Below, one piece after another: positions 5,624-13,864 of a DNA stretch of 13,864 bases. The notes beneath the pieces were generated by a model. It saw nothing but the letters and a program-made list of their open reading frames with translations. It was not told the origin of the DNA and ran no database searches. The DNA comes from Candidatus Eiseniibacteriota bacterium (GTDB lineage Bacteria; Arandabacterota; Arandabacteria; JAGLYR01): positions 1 through 13,864 of the forward strand of contig JAGLYR010000221.1 of assembly GCA_023132135.1 (NCBI GenBank), in the 5' to 3' direction. How positions within the stretch are numbered: the first letter of the stretch is position 1; the number at the start of each line of letters is the position of its first letter. The position numbers and the translations under genes were made by a program.

Positions 5624-7423
5624 CTACTTGATCACAATCATCTTCCCCGTCCGATGCCGATCTCCATTCTCGATGCGATAGAAGTACACACCGGCAGGGT
5701 GGCCGTCCGCAGACCACCTCAGCGTCCCGGATACGCCACCGGACCAGTCGTCAGTCTGCGTCTCAATCCGCCGGCCCGCAACATCGTAGATGGACACACT
5801 CACAGGAGCTGCCGGATTGGGAACCGAGAACCGGATGTCGGTCCATTCCCGAACCGGATTGGGCTGGAGCGCCACGTCGATGCCGCCCGAGGGCCACACG
5901 ATCTCCGGTTCCGCCACGTCGGTTACGAAGGAGTAGATGTCCGTATCCACGGAAAAGAAGTTGAACCCGTCGGTGGCTACCTGGACGTCGTCCTCAACGT
6001 CGGTGCTGGCCGGTGGCATGGGATCGCCGTTGACCCAGTCCGTGAAGTAGAGCCAGCTGCCTACGGCGTTTAGCCGGGCCATGCTCTCGCCGTGGGGCAT
6101 TCCATGAGCACTGTGGCCGACCGGAAAAACGGAGGCCTGTGGCAGGAGAGCGTTAACGAGTGCCAGGTTCGAGCTCTTCCAGCTGCCGTGGTGGTCCACC
6201 TGGTAGACCTCAACCGGCTGCGGGATTTCGGCCGCCATGCTTGTCTCAATGTCCTCGTAGAGAACGTCATCATACCCGGAAAGGTCGCCCGCAACAAAGA
6301 ACTGGAAGGCGTAGAAACTCAGGTAGAGCGCAACGGACAGATCGTTCTCCGCCCAAGGCGGGGCGGTGTAGGGCTGGCCCAGCTGGCCGTTGCCGTTCAG
6401 GCCCAGGCACTTGATCGTGCAACCGGAACCGAGGTCGAACACCTGGTTCTTGTAGAACGTGTACCGGAACCCCGACACCGCGTCTGCGTACGAGTTGTAC
6501 GTGGCCGTCGTGTAGCTCCACCCCCTGTCCCACGCTCCGCCGGAAACCGCGATCCCCTGCTGGATGACTTCGTCCAACCCACCGATGTGATCGGCGTCGT
6601 AGTGAGAGGCGCCCATGTAGCTCAGGGTGTCAATACCCAATGCACCCAGGAACGGGACAATCTTGCCCGCTCCCGCACCGTTGTTCCCTCCATCGAAAAG
6701 GAAACTCCCACCGCTGGGCGAGACGATCAGTGTCGCATCTGCCTGCCCCACGTTGAGACAGGTGATGATCAGAATCTCCGTCTGGTAGGGCATGGGCGGT
6801 TCCGTGGCCGAGCTCCCGGTCTGGGGTCGGCCACTCAGCCGCTCGCGCCAGTCGTCGGCGTTGACATCCGTGTCCTCTCCATTTCCGAAAGCCTCCACGT
6901 GCGTGGTGCTCGATTTGCGCTCGATGGCGCGGTTGGCGGACACGTCTCGGAACGGCGCGCCCTCCAGGCTCACGAGCGGATTCCCTGCACCGCCGTAGGC
7001 AATGTAGTCGACAAGCTGGCCGAGGTTGTTATTCAGCTTCACGCCGTCGCCGTCCGGGTCTCCTGCCTGAAGATCAAAACCGCTGAACACGATATCCGGC
7101 TCCACTCCCATAACATAGACATCCGGCCCGATCAGGAAAAAGCCTTCCGAGGCAATGGACCCGCTGAGGGGTACGGTCACGTATTCAGTCCCTGTTTCTC
7201 CGTCCAGGCCAACGATGGACCATCCTGTGAGATCGACTGCCGAGACCGTCGGGTTGTAGAGCTCGACGAAGTTGTCGGTGTCCGTGGGGAACATCTCATA
7301 GAAAACCTCGGAGATCACGACGTGGTCCGCGATATGCGCAGCCGCCTGCGTCTGGGCCGGAAGGCACAGGAGCGCCACGGAAAGTACCATGGCGAAAGGA
7401 ACAGACAAAGGTCGCCCGGACAT
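5624..7423 (-). CDS. Secreted lamin-tail plus ComEC-like metallo-beta-lactamase protein with C-terminal sorting-type module
   Basis: The 599-residue product has a signal peptide (about 1-28), a lamin-tail domain (about 33-190: VVISEVFYE, NFVELYNPT, VDLTGWSI) and a metallo-beta-lactamase-fold domain (about 213-465). The last carries ComEC-type metal motifs: SHYDADHIGG (H274, D276, D278, H279), AGDLSG (D380) and DHHGSWKSS (D410, H411, H412). The third His of classical HxHxDH is Asp, as is normal in ComEC-like members. It ends in a FlgD-Ig/T9SS-like module (about 518-599) with QPNP, IYDVAGRR and GVYFYRIE. The ComEC DNA channel is absent, so this is a free secreted hydrolase; by analogy it may cut nucleic acid or another phosphodiester, but the substrate is unproven. 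Start: GAAGGGGG lies 8 bases before ATG 7423. A strong promoter lies upstream. Confidence 0.9.
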   Translation of the reverse strand: MSGRPLSVPFAMVLSVALLCLPAQTQAAAHIADHVVISEVFYEMFPTDTDNFVELYNPTVSAVDLTGWSIVGLDGETGTEYVTVPLSGSIASEGFFLIGPDVYVMGVEPDIVFSGFDLQAGDPDGDGVKLNNNLGQLVDYIAYGGAGNPLVSLEGAPFRDVSANRAIERKSSTTHVEAFGNGEDTDVNADDWRERLSGRPQTGSSATEPPMPYQTEILIITCLNVGQADATLIVSPSGGSFLFDGGNNGAGAGKIVPFLGALGIDTLSYMGASHYDADHIGGLDEVIQQGIAVSGGAWDRGWSYTTATYNSYADAVSGFRYTFYKNQVFDLGSGCTIKCLGLNGNGQLGQPYTAPPWAENDLSVALYLSFYAFQFFVAGDLSGYDDVLYEDIETSMAAEIPQPVEVYQVDHHGSWKSSNLALVNALLPQASVFPVGHSAHGMPHGESMARLNAVGSWLYFTDWVNGDPMPPASTDVEDDVQVATDGFNFFSVDTDIYSFVTDVAEPEIVWPSGGIDVALQPNPVREWTDIRFSVPNPAAPVSVSIYDVAGRRIETQTDDWSGGVSGTLRWSADGHPAGVYFYRIENGDRHRTGKMIVIK

Positions 7424-10655: not shown

Positions 10656-13532
10656 CTACTTCGCGAGAACCAGCTTGGCGGTTCTGGTTCGCCCACCTGT
10701 TGCCAACCTCGCAAAGTAGACCCCTGACGACACCCGGACCCCGCGGCTGTCCCGACCATCCCAGACAGCTCCATGCGCTCCCGGATGCTGAACCTCATCC
10801 ACCAGCCGGATGACCTTGCGCCCCGAGACATCGTACACATCCAGGGACACTCTGCACTTCGCTACGACGGAGTACCGCATCTCGACCGCTGGGTTGAACG
10901 GGTTGGGAAAGCAGACCAGCGAGAAATCGGCCGGAGCACCACCAGCTTCGCGCGCGCATTGTCCCATCCCCATCCCCGGCAGTGCCGCCGGCCACCCCAG
11001 GAAACAGAGGCTCCTCACGTAGTCCCGCGTGTGCGGATACTTGGTTGCACAACTGTTCTTGGAGCGAGTAAAACAATCCAGGGCGTCGGACGGGTATCCC
11101 GAGAAACGCCAGAGGGCCAGCTCTCGAGCAAACAGGATATGGCAGGAACTCCAGTGTCCCCGTCCGTGCGACACCCAGGCAACGGCCGCAGACTTCTGCG
11201 GATCGTTGAACAGGAACATCTCGGCCAGGACCGGATCGTAAACCGGGTTATCCCGGTCGATGTCGGCCATCCCACAGCCTGCTCCCCAGAAGATGAAGGG
11301 ATGCGGGCCTGTCGTCAGCCAGTCCATATCCCACCGGGGGGCCATCACTTTCTGAATGAACATCCCGGGCGTCCGCATACGGTTGGAAATCGCTCCCATT
11401 GTGAAGATTTCCCCGATTCCCTGGTTCAGGTCGCCGGCAACGTCCATCTGGCGCGTCATGTTGTCGTACCAGTCGTACTCGCTGTCCTTTCTCAGAAGCG
11501 TTGGAATGCCCTCCGACTCGTAGAGATTCCCAATCTCGACCAGGGTTTCATGCAGTGGTCCGGCCAGGACATTCCCTTCATCCACATCACCGGACAGGAG
11601 CAGAACCCCCTGCGTGCATTCCCCGTTCAGGAAATTGAGAAACGTGGCAACCGACCTGGCCACCTCATCCCTCCGGTCCGCAGGGATCCGGGCCAGGTTG
11701 AGATCCGCCAGCCCGTCGAAGTCGAGGTCGGTCAAGTCATGCTCGGCCGAGCACCAATCCGAGAAGTAGCAGGCCCCGTTGGAATCCTCGAAGTAGAAGG
11801 TCCCGACAATGTTCTTCTCCGGCTCCCCTCCCTCATTGGCATCGCCCACCACGATCACATTCGGACACGGTTTGTCGAGACTATCCGCTGCGGCCTTCAG
11901 GTTCTGGAGGTACTCGAAGAGAACGCATGGATCGCTGGTGGTGGATGGGTGAAGATGCGTCTCGATTCCCCGGCCGGCCCAGAAGGTCGCCACCGGACCT
12001 ACCTCCGAGAGCAGGGTATCGGGGCCGTAGAAAACGTAGTCCGGCCACCCGTCCGCGCGCACACCGTCGAGCCCGGATTGGGAATTCCCCTTGACCCGGA
12101 GTCCGCAGTCACCTGCAGACGGCGGCGCTGCCAGGGGAGCGCTGTCCGGATCATTGAGTTCCGCGGCCCGATTCCTGTACTCCGGCGGTGCGGATTCCAG
12201 GGGGAAAGGGCGCGACGTCGCGGCCGTACCCGACGCGTCCGTTTCCACGACAACGAATCTCTCCGGCCCGGCGGGAACGACAACGGAATAGAAGGCGGCT
12301 CGTCCCGGACCGCCGTGGGCCGGCACCTCGGCCAGCAGGTCTCTTCGATCGTCACCAAGCGCAAACACTTCGAAATGCCGGGATTCCCTTTCCGTTTCCG
12401 TCGTCCATTCGACGCGGATGCCGCCGGCCGATTCCGAAGCCCAGAGGCCGCCCCACCGGGTCGCCGGATCGTCGGGTATGGCATACAACGTCACGCAATG
12501 AGGATCGCCGCTGGGGCCCCGCGCCACGGTGTTGGCAGGATCCTGGTTCCCGTCCAGGATCCTGCCCCAGAGCGTCCGGGCCGTCTGGGCCTCCACGCAG
12601 ATGGAGCACAGGTGGGTGTCGTATGGCGCCGCGCCGAATACCAGACAGGTGTCATCCTGCCACGCAACGTCACCAACCATGACGGGGCCATAGGTCTGCA
12701 GAACCGGGAGAATGCTCGTGTCCATTCGGGTATCGAAAACAATTCTCTCACTGGTGAGGGTCCGGATCTGGTCTCCGTCCTCCAGCGACATCCGCCGCAC
12801 GGCCGGAGAAAGAACCGTGGTCCCCGGCCCCTGCCAGTGGCAGAGTGTCGCCCACAGGGGTTCTGCAGCCAGCTCGACGGTCCGGCAAATCCTGCAGGTT
12901 TCCCCATTCATCTGGCGCCAGAAGTGGTCGGCGTCTGCAAAGACCTGTGTCGCCGTTTCCGCAGTGTTGTAGCAAAGCACCTCGCGCGCATCCGAGAACC
13001 CAAAGGCGGCTGTGCAGGAGTGGCACGATGCCACGTAGACAACGGAGTTGCGATCGTTGAAACGGCCCATGACTCCAAACCCGGTGATGGCGATGCCCCA
13101 ACCGTAGACATCATCCGTGCAGCAGATATGACTCTCGACCCAACCCGAGTCCAGATAGTGCAGGAACGCCTCGTTTCGTGCGGCCAGCCCCTCGGGCGAT
13201 TTCTCATAGGTCTCAATCGTGAAGAACCCGGTACTCCCATGCGTGTGTACGTAGAGAATTCCGGCTCCCAACTCCAGAGCCGAACTGAAGTCATCCAGGG
13301 TGCAAACGGGTGAGCAGCCCGGCTGATTGTCACGGTGTGTCGTCACGTCGAAGTGCTGGTCGACACCGGTCTCCTCCACGGAAGCACACGGAGCGAGGTT
13401 CCAGGCGTACGGCAGGAACAGGCAGAAATCGTTGGAAGTTGGTGCTTCGAATACCGGAGCCGGCTCTGCCGCTGACCGCGAACCGGCCAGAACTCCCGCG
13501 ATCACCAAGGTCATCAGGACTCGTCGTCTCAT
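10656..13532 (-). CDS. Secreted clan CD peptidase-like protein: caspase/CHAT-like region plus gingipain (C25)-like region
   Basis: This 958-residue protein has a signal peptide (about 1-22). An N-terminal clan CD-like region (about 33-210) carries ILYVHTHGS (H98) and VVYVASCHSC (C170), a His-Cys pair placed as in caspase, CHAT and C25 peptidases. A fibronectin-like stretch follows (about 345-430: GGIRVEWTTETERESRHFEV). A peptidase C25-like region (about 490-800) has NVIVVGDANEG (D564), LADLNLARIPADRRDEV and GIGEIFTMGAIS where gingipains have TGHGS, so the catalytic His is missing. C753 in GCGMADID aligns with the gingipain Cys. The FlgD-Ig/T9SS-like module (about 873-958) has FPNPFNP, VYDVSGRK and GVYFARL. 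Start: ATG 13532 is spaced correctly after GGAGGG; the GTG two codons upstream is too close to it. The substrate is unknown. First domain active and second structural is inference. Confidence 0.88.
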   Translation of the reverse strand: MRRRVLMTLVIAGVLAGSRSAAEPAPVFEAPTSNDFCLFLPYAWNLAPCASVEETGVDQHFDVTTHRDNQPGCSPVCTLDDFSSALELGAGILYVHTHGSTGFFTIETYEKSPEGLAARNEAFLHYLDSGWVESHICCTDDVYGWGIAITGFGVMGRFNDRNSVVYVASCHSCTAAFGFSDAREVLCYNTAETATQVFADADHFWRQMNGETCRICRTVELAAEPLWATLCHWQGPGTTVLSPAVRRMSLEDGDQIRTLTSERIVFDTRMDTSILPVLQTYGPVMVGDVAWQDDTCLVFGAAPYDTHLCSICVEAQTARTLWGRILDGNQDPANTVARGPSGDPHCVTLYAIPDDPATRWGGLWASESAGGIRVEWTTETERESRHFEVFALGDDRRDLLAEVPAHGGPGRAAFYSVVVPAGPERFVVVETDASGTAATSRPFPLESAPPEYRNRAAELNDPDSAPLAAPPSAGDCGLRVKGNSQSGLDGVRADGWPDYVFYGPDTLLSEVGPVATFWAGRGIETHLHPSTTSDPCVLFEYLQNLKAAADSLDKPCPNVIVVGDANEGGEPEKNIVGTFYFEDSNGACYFSDWCSAEHDLTDLDFDGLADLNLARIPADRRDEVARSVATFLNFLNGECTQGVLLLSGDVDEGNVLAGPLHETLVEIGNLYESEGIPTLLRKDSEYDWYDNMTRQMDVAGDLNQGIGEIFTMGAISNRMRTPGMFIQKVMAPRWDMDWLTTGPHPFIFWGAGCGMADIDRDNPVYDPVLAEMFLFNDPQKSAAVAWVSHGRGHWSSCHILFARELALWRFSGYPSDALDCFTRSKNSCATKYPHTRDYVRSLCFLGWPAALPGMGMGQCAREAGGAPADFSLVCFPNPFNPAVEMRYSVVAKCRVSLDVYDVSGRKVIRLVDEVQHPGAHGAVWDGRDSRGVRVSSGVYFARLATGGRTRTAKLVLAK

Positions 13533-13574
13533 TGCCACCCTCCCCTTCCCCGCCCTGCTTCCGAGTCACTCCGG

Positions 13575-13838
13575 CTAGTCCTGCGCCTCCAGAAATTCCC
13601 GAGCGAAATCCGCAGAAAGAATCTCGAGTTCCTCGGCTCCCGCATCCTGAAACCGTTCAAGCAACTCCAGCTCGTACTCAAGTTCCCCGATCCTCCCGTG
13701 CGGAAGGATCATCTCACCACCGGCGCCAACAATGACAATGTGGCCTCGCGACAAGTGCCGGGTGTATCTCTCTGCGTTTCTCCGGCAGATCTCGAACCAG
13801 GGAGCAGGCCCAGGCTGCTGTTCCGTCGGGATCATCAC
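13575..13838 (-). CDS. Small soluble protein of unknown function, possibly 5'-truncated by the window edge
   Basis: I do not recognise this product of 86-87 residues. It has no signal peptide or membrane helix. A short beta-like stretch GHIVIVGAGGEMILP (about 32-46) is followed by an acidic helix (IGELEYELELLERFQDAG, about 50-67) and an acidic end. Two adjacent starts, GTG 13838 and ATG 13835, both lie after GGGAGG at workable distances. However, the frame stays open to the right edge and reads plausibly there (DGPPWEEYV), so the gene may start outside the window. It ends 42 bases before the peptidase-like gene on the same strand, which suggests one operon with that gene and the lipoprotein. 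Confidence 0.62.
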   Translation of the reverse strand: MMIPTEQQPGPAPWFEICRRNAERYTRHLSRGHIVIVGAGGEMILPHGRIGELEYELELLERFQDAGAEELEILSADFAREFLEAQD

Positions 13839-13864
13839 GTATTCCTCCCAGGGGGGGCCGTCTT

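What the first reader, a model, noticed from the sequence alone, without database searches (positions are those of the whole stretch)
10656..13532. Two clan CD peptidase regions in one secreted protein, the second apparently having lost its catalytic His
The N-terminal region has both H98 (HTHGS) and C170 (ASCHSC) in clan CD positions. The gingipain-like region has LNQGIGEIFTMGAIS, which lines up with the C25 pattern ending YTGHGS but has no His, while its Cys (C753, followed by Asp six residues on as in C25) is kept. Family knowledge says both residues are needed for C25 activity. The inference is an active caspase/CHAT-like enzyme joined to a pseudo-gingipain that may bind substrate or inhibit or position the first domain.
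Basis: partly seen in the sequence, partly recalled or inferred. Interest (0 to 1): 0.7.

Follow-up and report, generated by a model that had tools for sequence, protein, structure and literature searches.

The report
Secreted protease fused to pseudo-gingipain
A bacterium of the Eisenbacteria group makes a secreted protein that joins what looks like a working caspase-type protease to a gingipain-type domain that has lost one of its two catalytic residues in every relative examined, and in two relatives this second domain appears to carry the rare amino acid selenocysteine.

Summary
D1 has H100 and C172, invariant in 9/9 homologues. D2 is a true C25 (gingipain) homologue (profile-profile 99.8%). 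Its catalytic His is absent in all 13 members read, while its Cys (C755) is always kept; in 26 ordinary C25 domains of the same genome His is kept in 24 and Cys in 26. The loss is an old family trait, and D2 is better conserved than D1 (48/47% against 32/23%), so it is not decaying. Most likely D1 cuts and D2 binds or positions. A small secreted partner gene sits upstream in most D1 loci.

New: Cys538 in D2 aligns with a single in-frame TGA at the same column in two relatives only 47% identical to each other. Both have a SECIS-like hairpin about 20 nt downstream, and their genomes have tRNA-Sec, SelA and SelB. D2 is therefore very probably a selenoprotein there; I found no such case in the literature checked. 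AlphaFold models were too poor to test geometry; D1's clan CD assignment rests on motif and weak profile evidence.

The parts
10656..13532 (-). Whole coding sequence, two-domain secreted protein (ATG start; GTG at 13538 also possible)
   Evidence: homologues aligned full length
13467..13532 (-). Signal peptide MRRRVLMTLVIAGVLAGSRSAA (by eye)
   Evidence: sequence; secretion also implied by the T9SS sorting domain
12780..13448 (-). D1, residues 31-253, clan CD-like peptidase domain
   Evidence: HG and C invariant in 9/9; hhalign to C25 profile E 2.6e-4, placing H100 on the C25 catalytic His
13239..13241 (-).
   Evidence: invariant 9/9
13023..13025 (-).
   Evidence: invariant 9/9
12189..12806 (-). 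Residues 245-450, two Ig/FN3-like linker regions (by eye, motif FDTRMDTS), no Pfam hit
   Evidence: alignment; no Pfam domain
10962..12059 (-). D2, residues 494-859, C25 (gingipain)-homologous domain without catalytic His
   Evidence: hhalign 99.8%, E 2.4e-28 against 26 C25 domains; hmmsearch 1.5e-13; Pfam C25 in relatives G001, G000 paralogue, G388, G073, G106c, G346
11925..11927 (-). C538 (TGC), aligned with in-frame TGA (Sec) in G001 and G007
11385..11396 (-). G715-A716-I717-S718, position of C25 GHGx; A716 replaces the His, S718 invariant 12/12
11274..11276 (-).
   Evidence: 12/12
10668..10910 (-). T9SS type A C-terminal sorting domain, residues 877-957
   Evidence: TIGR04183 26.5 bits, cut-off 23
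13575..13862 (-). 3' part of the upstream partner gene, cut by the contig end
   Evidence: HMM of partners from other loci hits it at E 2.5e-6

Best explanation
It is a cell-surface or released cysteine endopeptidase of an Eisenbacteria lineage. The protein crosses the inner membrane by its signal peptide and the outer membrane by T9SS (shown at the level of sequence). D1 (H100/C172) is the working clan CD-type protease (inferred from the invariant dyad). D2 is a gingipain-derived domain that lost the general base long ago and cannot hydrolyse by the C25 mechanism. It keeps the fold, the Cys and the pocket-side loop, and most likely binds and positions the substrate for D1 (inferred). In this sublineage D2 also acquired a Cys, replaced by selenocysteine in two relatives, at the start of a helix in its N-terminal subdomain. 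This gives it a reactive thiol/selenol, probably a redox switch or thiol-binding site (inferred). The small secreted upstream protein follows D1 rather than D2 and is probably its inhibitor or chaperone (inferred).
For: D1: H, G and C invariant in 9/9 divergent members; profile link to C25 at the His strand. D2: homology to C25 by hhalign 99.8%, hmmsearch and Pfam hits in relatives. His 0/12 and Cys 12/12, one more, against 24/26 and 26/26 in ordinary C25 of the same genome. D2 more conserved than D1. The Gly/aromatic loop after strand AVAWVS, matching in order the RgpB L5 loop (Gln282/Trp284, PMC4357240), is mostly kept. D2 also occurs behind other N-terminal regions (L092, G346/L115), as expected of an accessory module. 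T9SS tail TIGR04183 above cut-off. Sec: one TGA at the same column in two proteins 47% identical to each other; the downstream hairpin is the best jointly conserved one among about 930 aligned codons; tRNA-Sec with anticodon TCA, SelB, SelA. G001's own gene ends in TGA, so TGA is not reassigned. Partner: present in 8 D1-D2 loci, not detected beside the two D2 genes without a recognisable D1.
Against: No reliable structure: pLDDT 37 (D1) and 46 (D2); Foldseek on D1 gave nothing and on D2 gave RgpB only at rank 11 with low TM. D1 has no Pfam hit. An inactive domain need not keep its Cys in 12/12, so D2 may still do chemistry. Partner absence in two loci is a small sample. No activity data.
Confidence: 0.5

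Rival explanations
1. D2 is still a hydrolase or transferase. The general base moved to another loop, for example H800 or H791 in the loop after strand AVAWVS, which would lie beside C755.
For: C755 and S718 are invariant 12/12; H800 is His in 7/12 and often one residue off in others. Strong conservation of D2.
Against: H800 is N, Y or A in 5/12 and H791 is His in only 6/12. The Gly beside the His that all clan CD families keep (PMC4357240) is gone too. No model good enough to place the His.
Confidence: 0.15
2. D2 was repurposed into a redox domain: the Cys/Sec at 538, at the N-terminus of a helix, works with C755 or the C590/C596 pair as a thiol/selenol oxidoreductase or peroxidase.
For: Sec/Cys pair. 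The predicted strand 34-38, then helix 44-60, with C538 being model residue 45, puts it at a helix start. A TlpA-like gene (motif WCGPC) lies directly downstream of the G389 member. Most selenoproteins are redox enzymes (PMC9312934).
Against: Other members have D, A, L or P at 538, so it is not the family's core function. Helix placement rests on a low-confidence model.
Confidence: 0.15
3. D1 is not a clan CD peptidase, or is itself inactive; the H/C pattern has another role and the protein is an adhesin or receptor.
For: No Pfam match for D1; profile link to C25 only 42% probability; fold prediction failed.
Against: H, G and C invariant in 9/9 at low identity, in the clan CD order, with the HG motif at the end of a predicted-strand-like hydrophobic run.
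Confidence: 0.2
4. The TGA codons in the two relatives are not selenocysteine but assembly error, pseudogenisation or simple readthrough.
For: Both come from metagenome assemblies. In G007 an alternative fold is slightly better than the hairpin. Rfam has no match there.
Against: Same column in two genomes 47% identical at the protein level, no other stop or frameshift, strongly conserved protein after it, Cys in the window, best joint hairpin in the gene, full Sec machinery.
Confidence: 0.08

Closest known systems
Peptidase family C25 (gingipains; Pfam PF01364), clan CD
   Same: D2 aligns over the whole domain: N-subdomain with VGD, D-D-G-x-x-D and R-x-P motifs, catalytic Cys strand, T9SS tail
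   Different: Catalytic His (and its following Gly) absent in all members; conserved S718, often S-N-R, there instead; a second HG...C domain precedes it
Clan CD peptidases at large (caspase C14, CHAT, C11, C80)
   Same: D1 has the order His-Gly then Cys, about 70 residues apart
   Different: No sequence-profile match to any of these families
PorU/PorU2, C25-type T9SS sortase (NF033707, NF052324)
   Same: C25 domain plus T9SS tail; the paralogue in G000 C200 has a weak PorU2-related hit
   Different: Far below the models' cut-offs; in the window protein only the tail matches; no catalytic His
Prokaryotic selenoproteins
   Same: Sec/Cys pair, SECIS-like hairpin just after UGA, Sec machinery
   Different: No C25 or other clan CD member found in the texts checked (PMC9312934, PMC13188914, PMC12013277); window copy has Cys

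Membership tests
Peptidase family C25 (for D2) | Sequence homology over the C25 domain | tested here: met
   hhalign 99.8%, E 2.4e-28; hmmsearch 1.5e-13 for the window protein; Pfam C25 in relatives
Peptidase family C25 (for D2) | Catalytic His of GHG | tested here: not met
   A716 in the window; 0/12 in the family
Peptidase family C25 (for D2) | Catalytic Cys | tested here: met
   C755, 12/12
Peptidase family C25 (for D2) | Proteolysis after Arg/Lys | not testable with these tools
   needs protein
Clan CD peptidase (for D1) | His-Gly then Cys dyad, conserved | tested here: met
   9/9
Clan CD peptidase (for D1) | Caspase/haemoglobinase fold | tested here: inconclusive
   AF2 pLDDT 37, no Foldseek hit; weak profile link to C25
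CHAT PF12770 / caspase PF00656 (for D1) | Pfam profile match | tested here: not met
   none at E up to 1 in the window protein or A1 members; none at the cut-offs used for other members
T9SS cargo | Type A C-terminal sorting domain | tested here: met
   TIGR04183 26.5 bits over cut-off 23
Selenoprotein (G001 and G007 homologues) | In-frame UGA aligned with Cys in homologues | tested here: met
Selenoprotein (G001 and G007 homologues) | SECIS-like hairpin just downstream | tested here: met
   apical loop 20-21 nt after UGA, best joint hairpin; in G007 a competing fold exists
Selenoprotein (G001 and G007 homologues) | Genome encodes tRNA-Sec, SelA, SelB | tested here: met
Selenoprotein (window protein) | In-frame UGA | tested here: not met
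   TGC at 538; hairpin absent

The most novel reading that the evidence does not exclude
A gingipain-type protease domain that lost its protease chemistry and was turned into a secreted selenol/thiol redox domain, working next to an active clan CD protease in the same exported chain.
Probability: 0.17. Interest if true: 0.8.

Novelty: new variant of a known kind. Interest (0 to 1): 0.55.

Why it matters
A family-wide loss of one half of a catalytic dyad with strict retention of the other is a clean case for asking what a nucleophile does without its base. The Sec variant in two lineages would, if confirmed, place selenocysteine in a gingipain-type domain exported by T9SS, which I did not find described. 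It would also mean that automated annotation cuts these proteins in two at the UGA. The co-inherited partner gene gives a testable inhibitor or chaperone.

Tried and rejected
AlphaFold2 of D1 and D2 with the three sequences allowed: too low in confidence; Foldseek on them not informative. Sequence search of solved structures with the family profile: nothing. Viral-contig scan: nothing. First genome-contig scan with a single sequence: nothing. PADLOC: no defence model. My first control sets of C25 domains included domains read on the wrong strand and were discarded; one search is the corrected one. TGA as a globally reassigned codon rejected, since G001's gene itself ends in TGA. Rfam has no match at the hairpin. 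The long plus-strand ORF 10773-13313 is antisense to the gene and was taken as a high-GC artefact.

Full report
WHAT IS THERE. The minus-strand gene at 10656-13532 (958 aa from the ATG; 960 from an upstream GTG, the numbering used here) lies in a 3.4 Mb draft genome whose class-mates include Candidatus Eisenbacteria CSMAG_2923. It reads: signal peptide; D1 (31-253); about 200 residues of Ig/FN3-like linkers; D2 (494-859); T9SS type A sorting tail (877-957, TIGR04183 26.5 bits, cut-off 23).

HOMOLOGUES. Genome searches found full-length or near-full relatives in G001, G007, G106 (two), G073 (two), G389 and G388, a paralogue in the same genome (G000:C200), and D2-bearing proteins without a recognisable D1 in G388, G106 and G346. 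The family is rare: 8 of 386 sampled genomes have a match at E 1e-8, and at least one of these (G194) is an ordinary C25 with GHG intact.

D2 IS A C25 DOMAIN WITHOUT ITS HIS. A profile of the D2 family matches a profile of 26 C25 domains of the same genome at 99.8% probability, E 2.4e-28, over 321 columns. The window protein alone scores E 1.5e-13. Pfam C25 hits exceed the cut-off in G001, the paralogue, G388, G073, G106 and G346. In the 26 ordinary domains the His column is His in 24 and the Cys column Cys in 26. In the 12 D2 members the His is never present, Cys is always present, and S718, G565 and G848 are also invariant. A thirteenth member (G346...SSYSNRSW... and GGSC...) fits by reading. 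The motif GHGS has become G-x-x-S, often followed by N-R. The loss is therefore ancestral to the family. D2 is also better conserved than D1 between the window and its two closest relatives (48/47% against 32/23%), which argues against decay. In order along the chain, the loop after the strand AVAWVS, where RgpB has S1-pocket residues (PMC4357240), keeps a Gly in 11/12 and mostly an aromatic residue. H800 in that loop is His in 7/12, so a relocated base is possible but not well supported.

D1 LOOKS LIKE A CLAN CD ENZYME. In nine D1 sequences, His-Gly (H100-G101) and Cys (C172) are invariant. The alignment with the C25 profile puts H100 on the C25 His, E 2.6e-4 but only 42% probability. There is no Pfam hit to CHAT, caspase or anything else. 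D1 is called a clan CD-type peptidase on motif, order and conservation. The fold is unproven, because both AlphaFold models were poor (pLDDT 37 and 46) and Foldseek on them was uninformative.

A SELENOCYSTEINE SITE IN D2. The G001 and G007 genes each carry exactly one in-frame TGA, at the same alignment column (U524, U548), where the window has TGC (C538). The two proteins are 46.8% identical, and the reading continues through the conserved rest of D2 to the sorting tail. The gene of G001 itself ends in TGA, so the codon is not simply reassigned. Downstream lies CCTTCACGGCGTGAAGG / CCTTCACGGGTTGAAGG, an 8-bp hairpin with apical loop 20-21 nt after the UGA. One stem pair is A-U in G007 and U-A in G001 (read). 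Scoring every codon of the two genes under a bacterial-SECIS-like rule (set from memory of the bSECISearch model), this hairpin is the best jointly conserved one, the next being -5.4 against -8.3 kcal/mol. The window copy has none. In G007 a competing fold is predicted, and Rfam matches nothing there. tRNA-Sec with anticodon TCA, SelB and SelA are present in these genomes and in the window's own. In the rest of the family the column is mostly Asp, Ala, Leu or Pro, so this is a lineage trait. The main texts of two selenoproteome reviews and the deep-Sep paper mention no C25 or clan CD family. Their supplements were not checked, and only the open-licence part of the literature was searched.

GENE NEIGHBOURHOOD. 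Directly upstream, usually overlapping or a few bases away, lies a small gene for a secreted protein with the motif (L/V)Y-x-(Y/F)-G-N-x-L-x-P-P-Y-x-F...NG and no Pfam family. It is recognisable at the window (cut by the contig end, 13575-13862), G001, G007, G106, G389, G388, G073 C46 and the C200 paralogue, marginal at G073 C8, and not detected beside the two D2 genes that lack a recognisable D1. It therefore tracks D1. I take it as the likely inhibitor or chaperone of D1; this is inference.

HOW IT PROBABLY WORKS. Shown by sequence: export signals, the dyad in D1, loss of the dyad in D2, C25 ancestry of D2, the Sec/Cys pair. Inferred: D1 cleaves; D2 binds or positions, possibly with a reactive thiol/selenol at 538; the partner controls D1. 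The occurrence of D2 behind other N-terminal regions (L092, which shows an NlpC/P60-like DCSGLV signature by eye, and G346) fits an accessory module.

VERDICT. This is a new variant of a known kind, with an apparently undescribed Sec-containing C25-type domain as its most interesting part.

Noticed in passing
L042:3999-6839 (-), L043:3918-6839 (-); also L073, L074: Homologues in G001 and G007 have one in-frame TGA at the column of window C538 and a SECIS-like hairpin: candidate selenoproteins.
   Followed up: yes
13575-13862 and L042:6833-7588, L043:6820-7665, L044:4263-5054, L047:7663-9027: Conserved secreted partner gene upstream of the D1-D2 gene, no Pfam family.
   Followed up: partly
L003 and L106 (own genome C80, C5): Two of 26 ordinary C25 domains of the genome also lack the His (RGWAF, RGFY) but keep the Cys: further pseudo-gingipains.
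   Followed up: no
L091:3805-6489 (-): D2 protein whose N-terminal part may be a D1 that lost both His and Cys (weak alignment, E 0.06).
   Followed up: partly
L092:3839-6439 (-): D2 behind a region with an NlpC/P60-like signature (DCSGLV...GD...H) read by eye, no Pfam hit.
   Followed up: partly
L048:2296-4148: G004 member lacks D1 and is split by a frame change, with a transposase-like gene just upstream: probably broken.
   Followed up: partly
L042:7701-7973 (-): A second, near-identical copy of the Ig-like linker of G001's protein in a short ORF upstream of the partner gene: recent partial duplication.
   Followed up: no
L089:128-2233 (-): TlpA-like thiol-oxidoreductase gene (WCGPC) 25 bases downstream of the G389 D1-D2 gene.
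   Followed up: no
5627-7423 (-): Secreted lamin-tail plus metallo-beta-lactamase protein with a T9SS-type tail.
   Followed up: no
G000, whole genome: 27 C25 matches in one 3.4 Mb genome, and well over 100 places with a related C-terminal sorting tail: a very large T9SS-type secretome.
   Followed up: no
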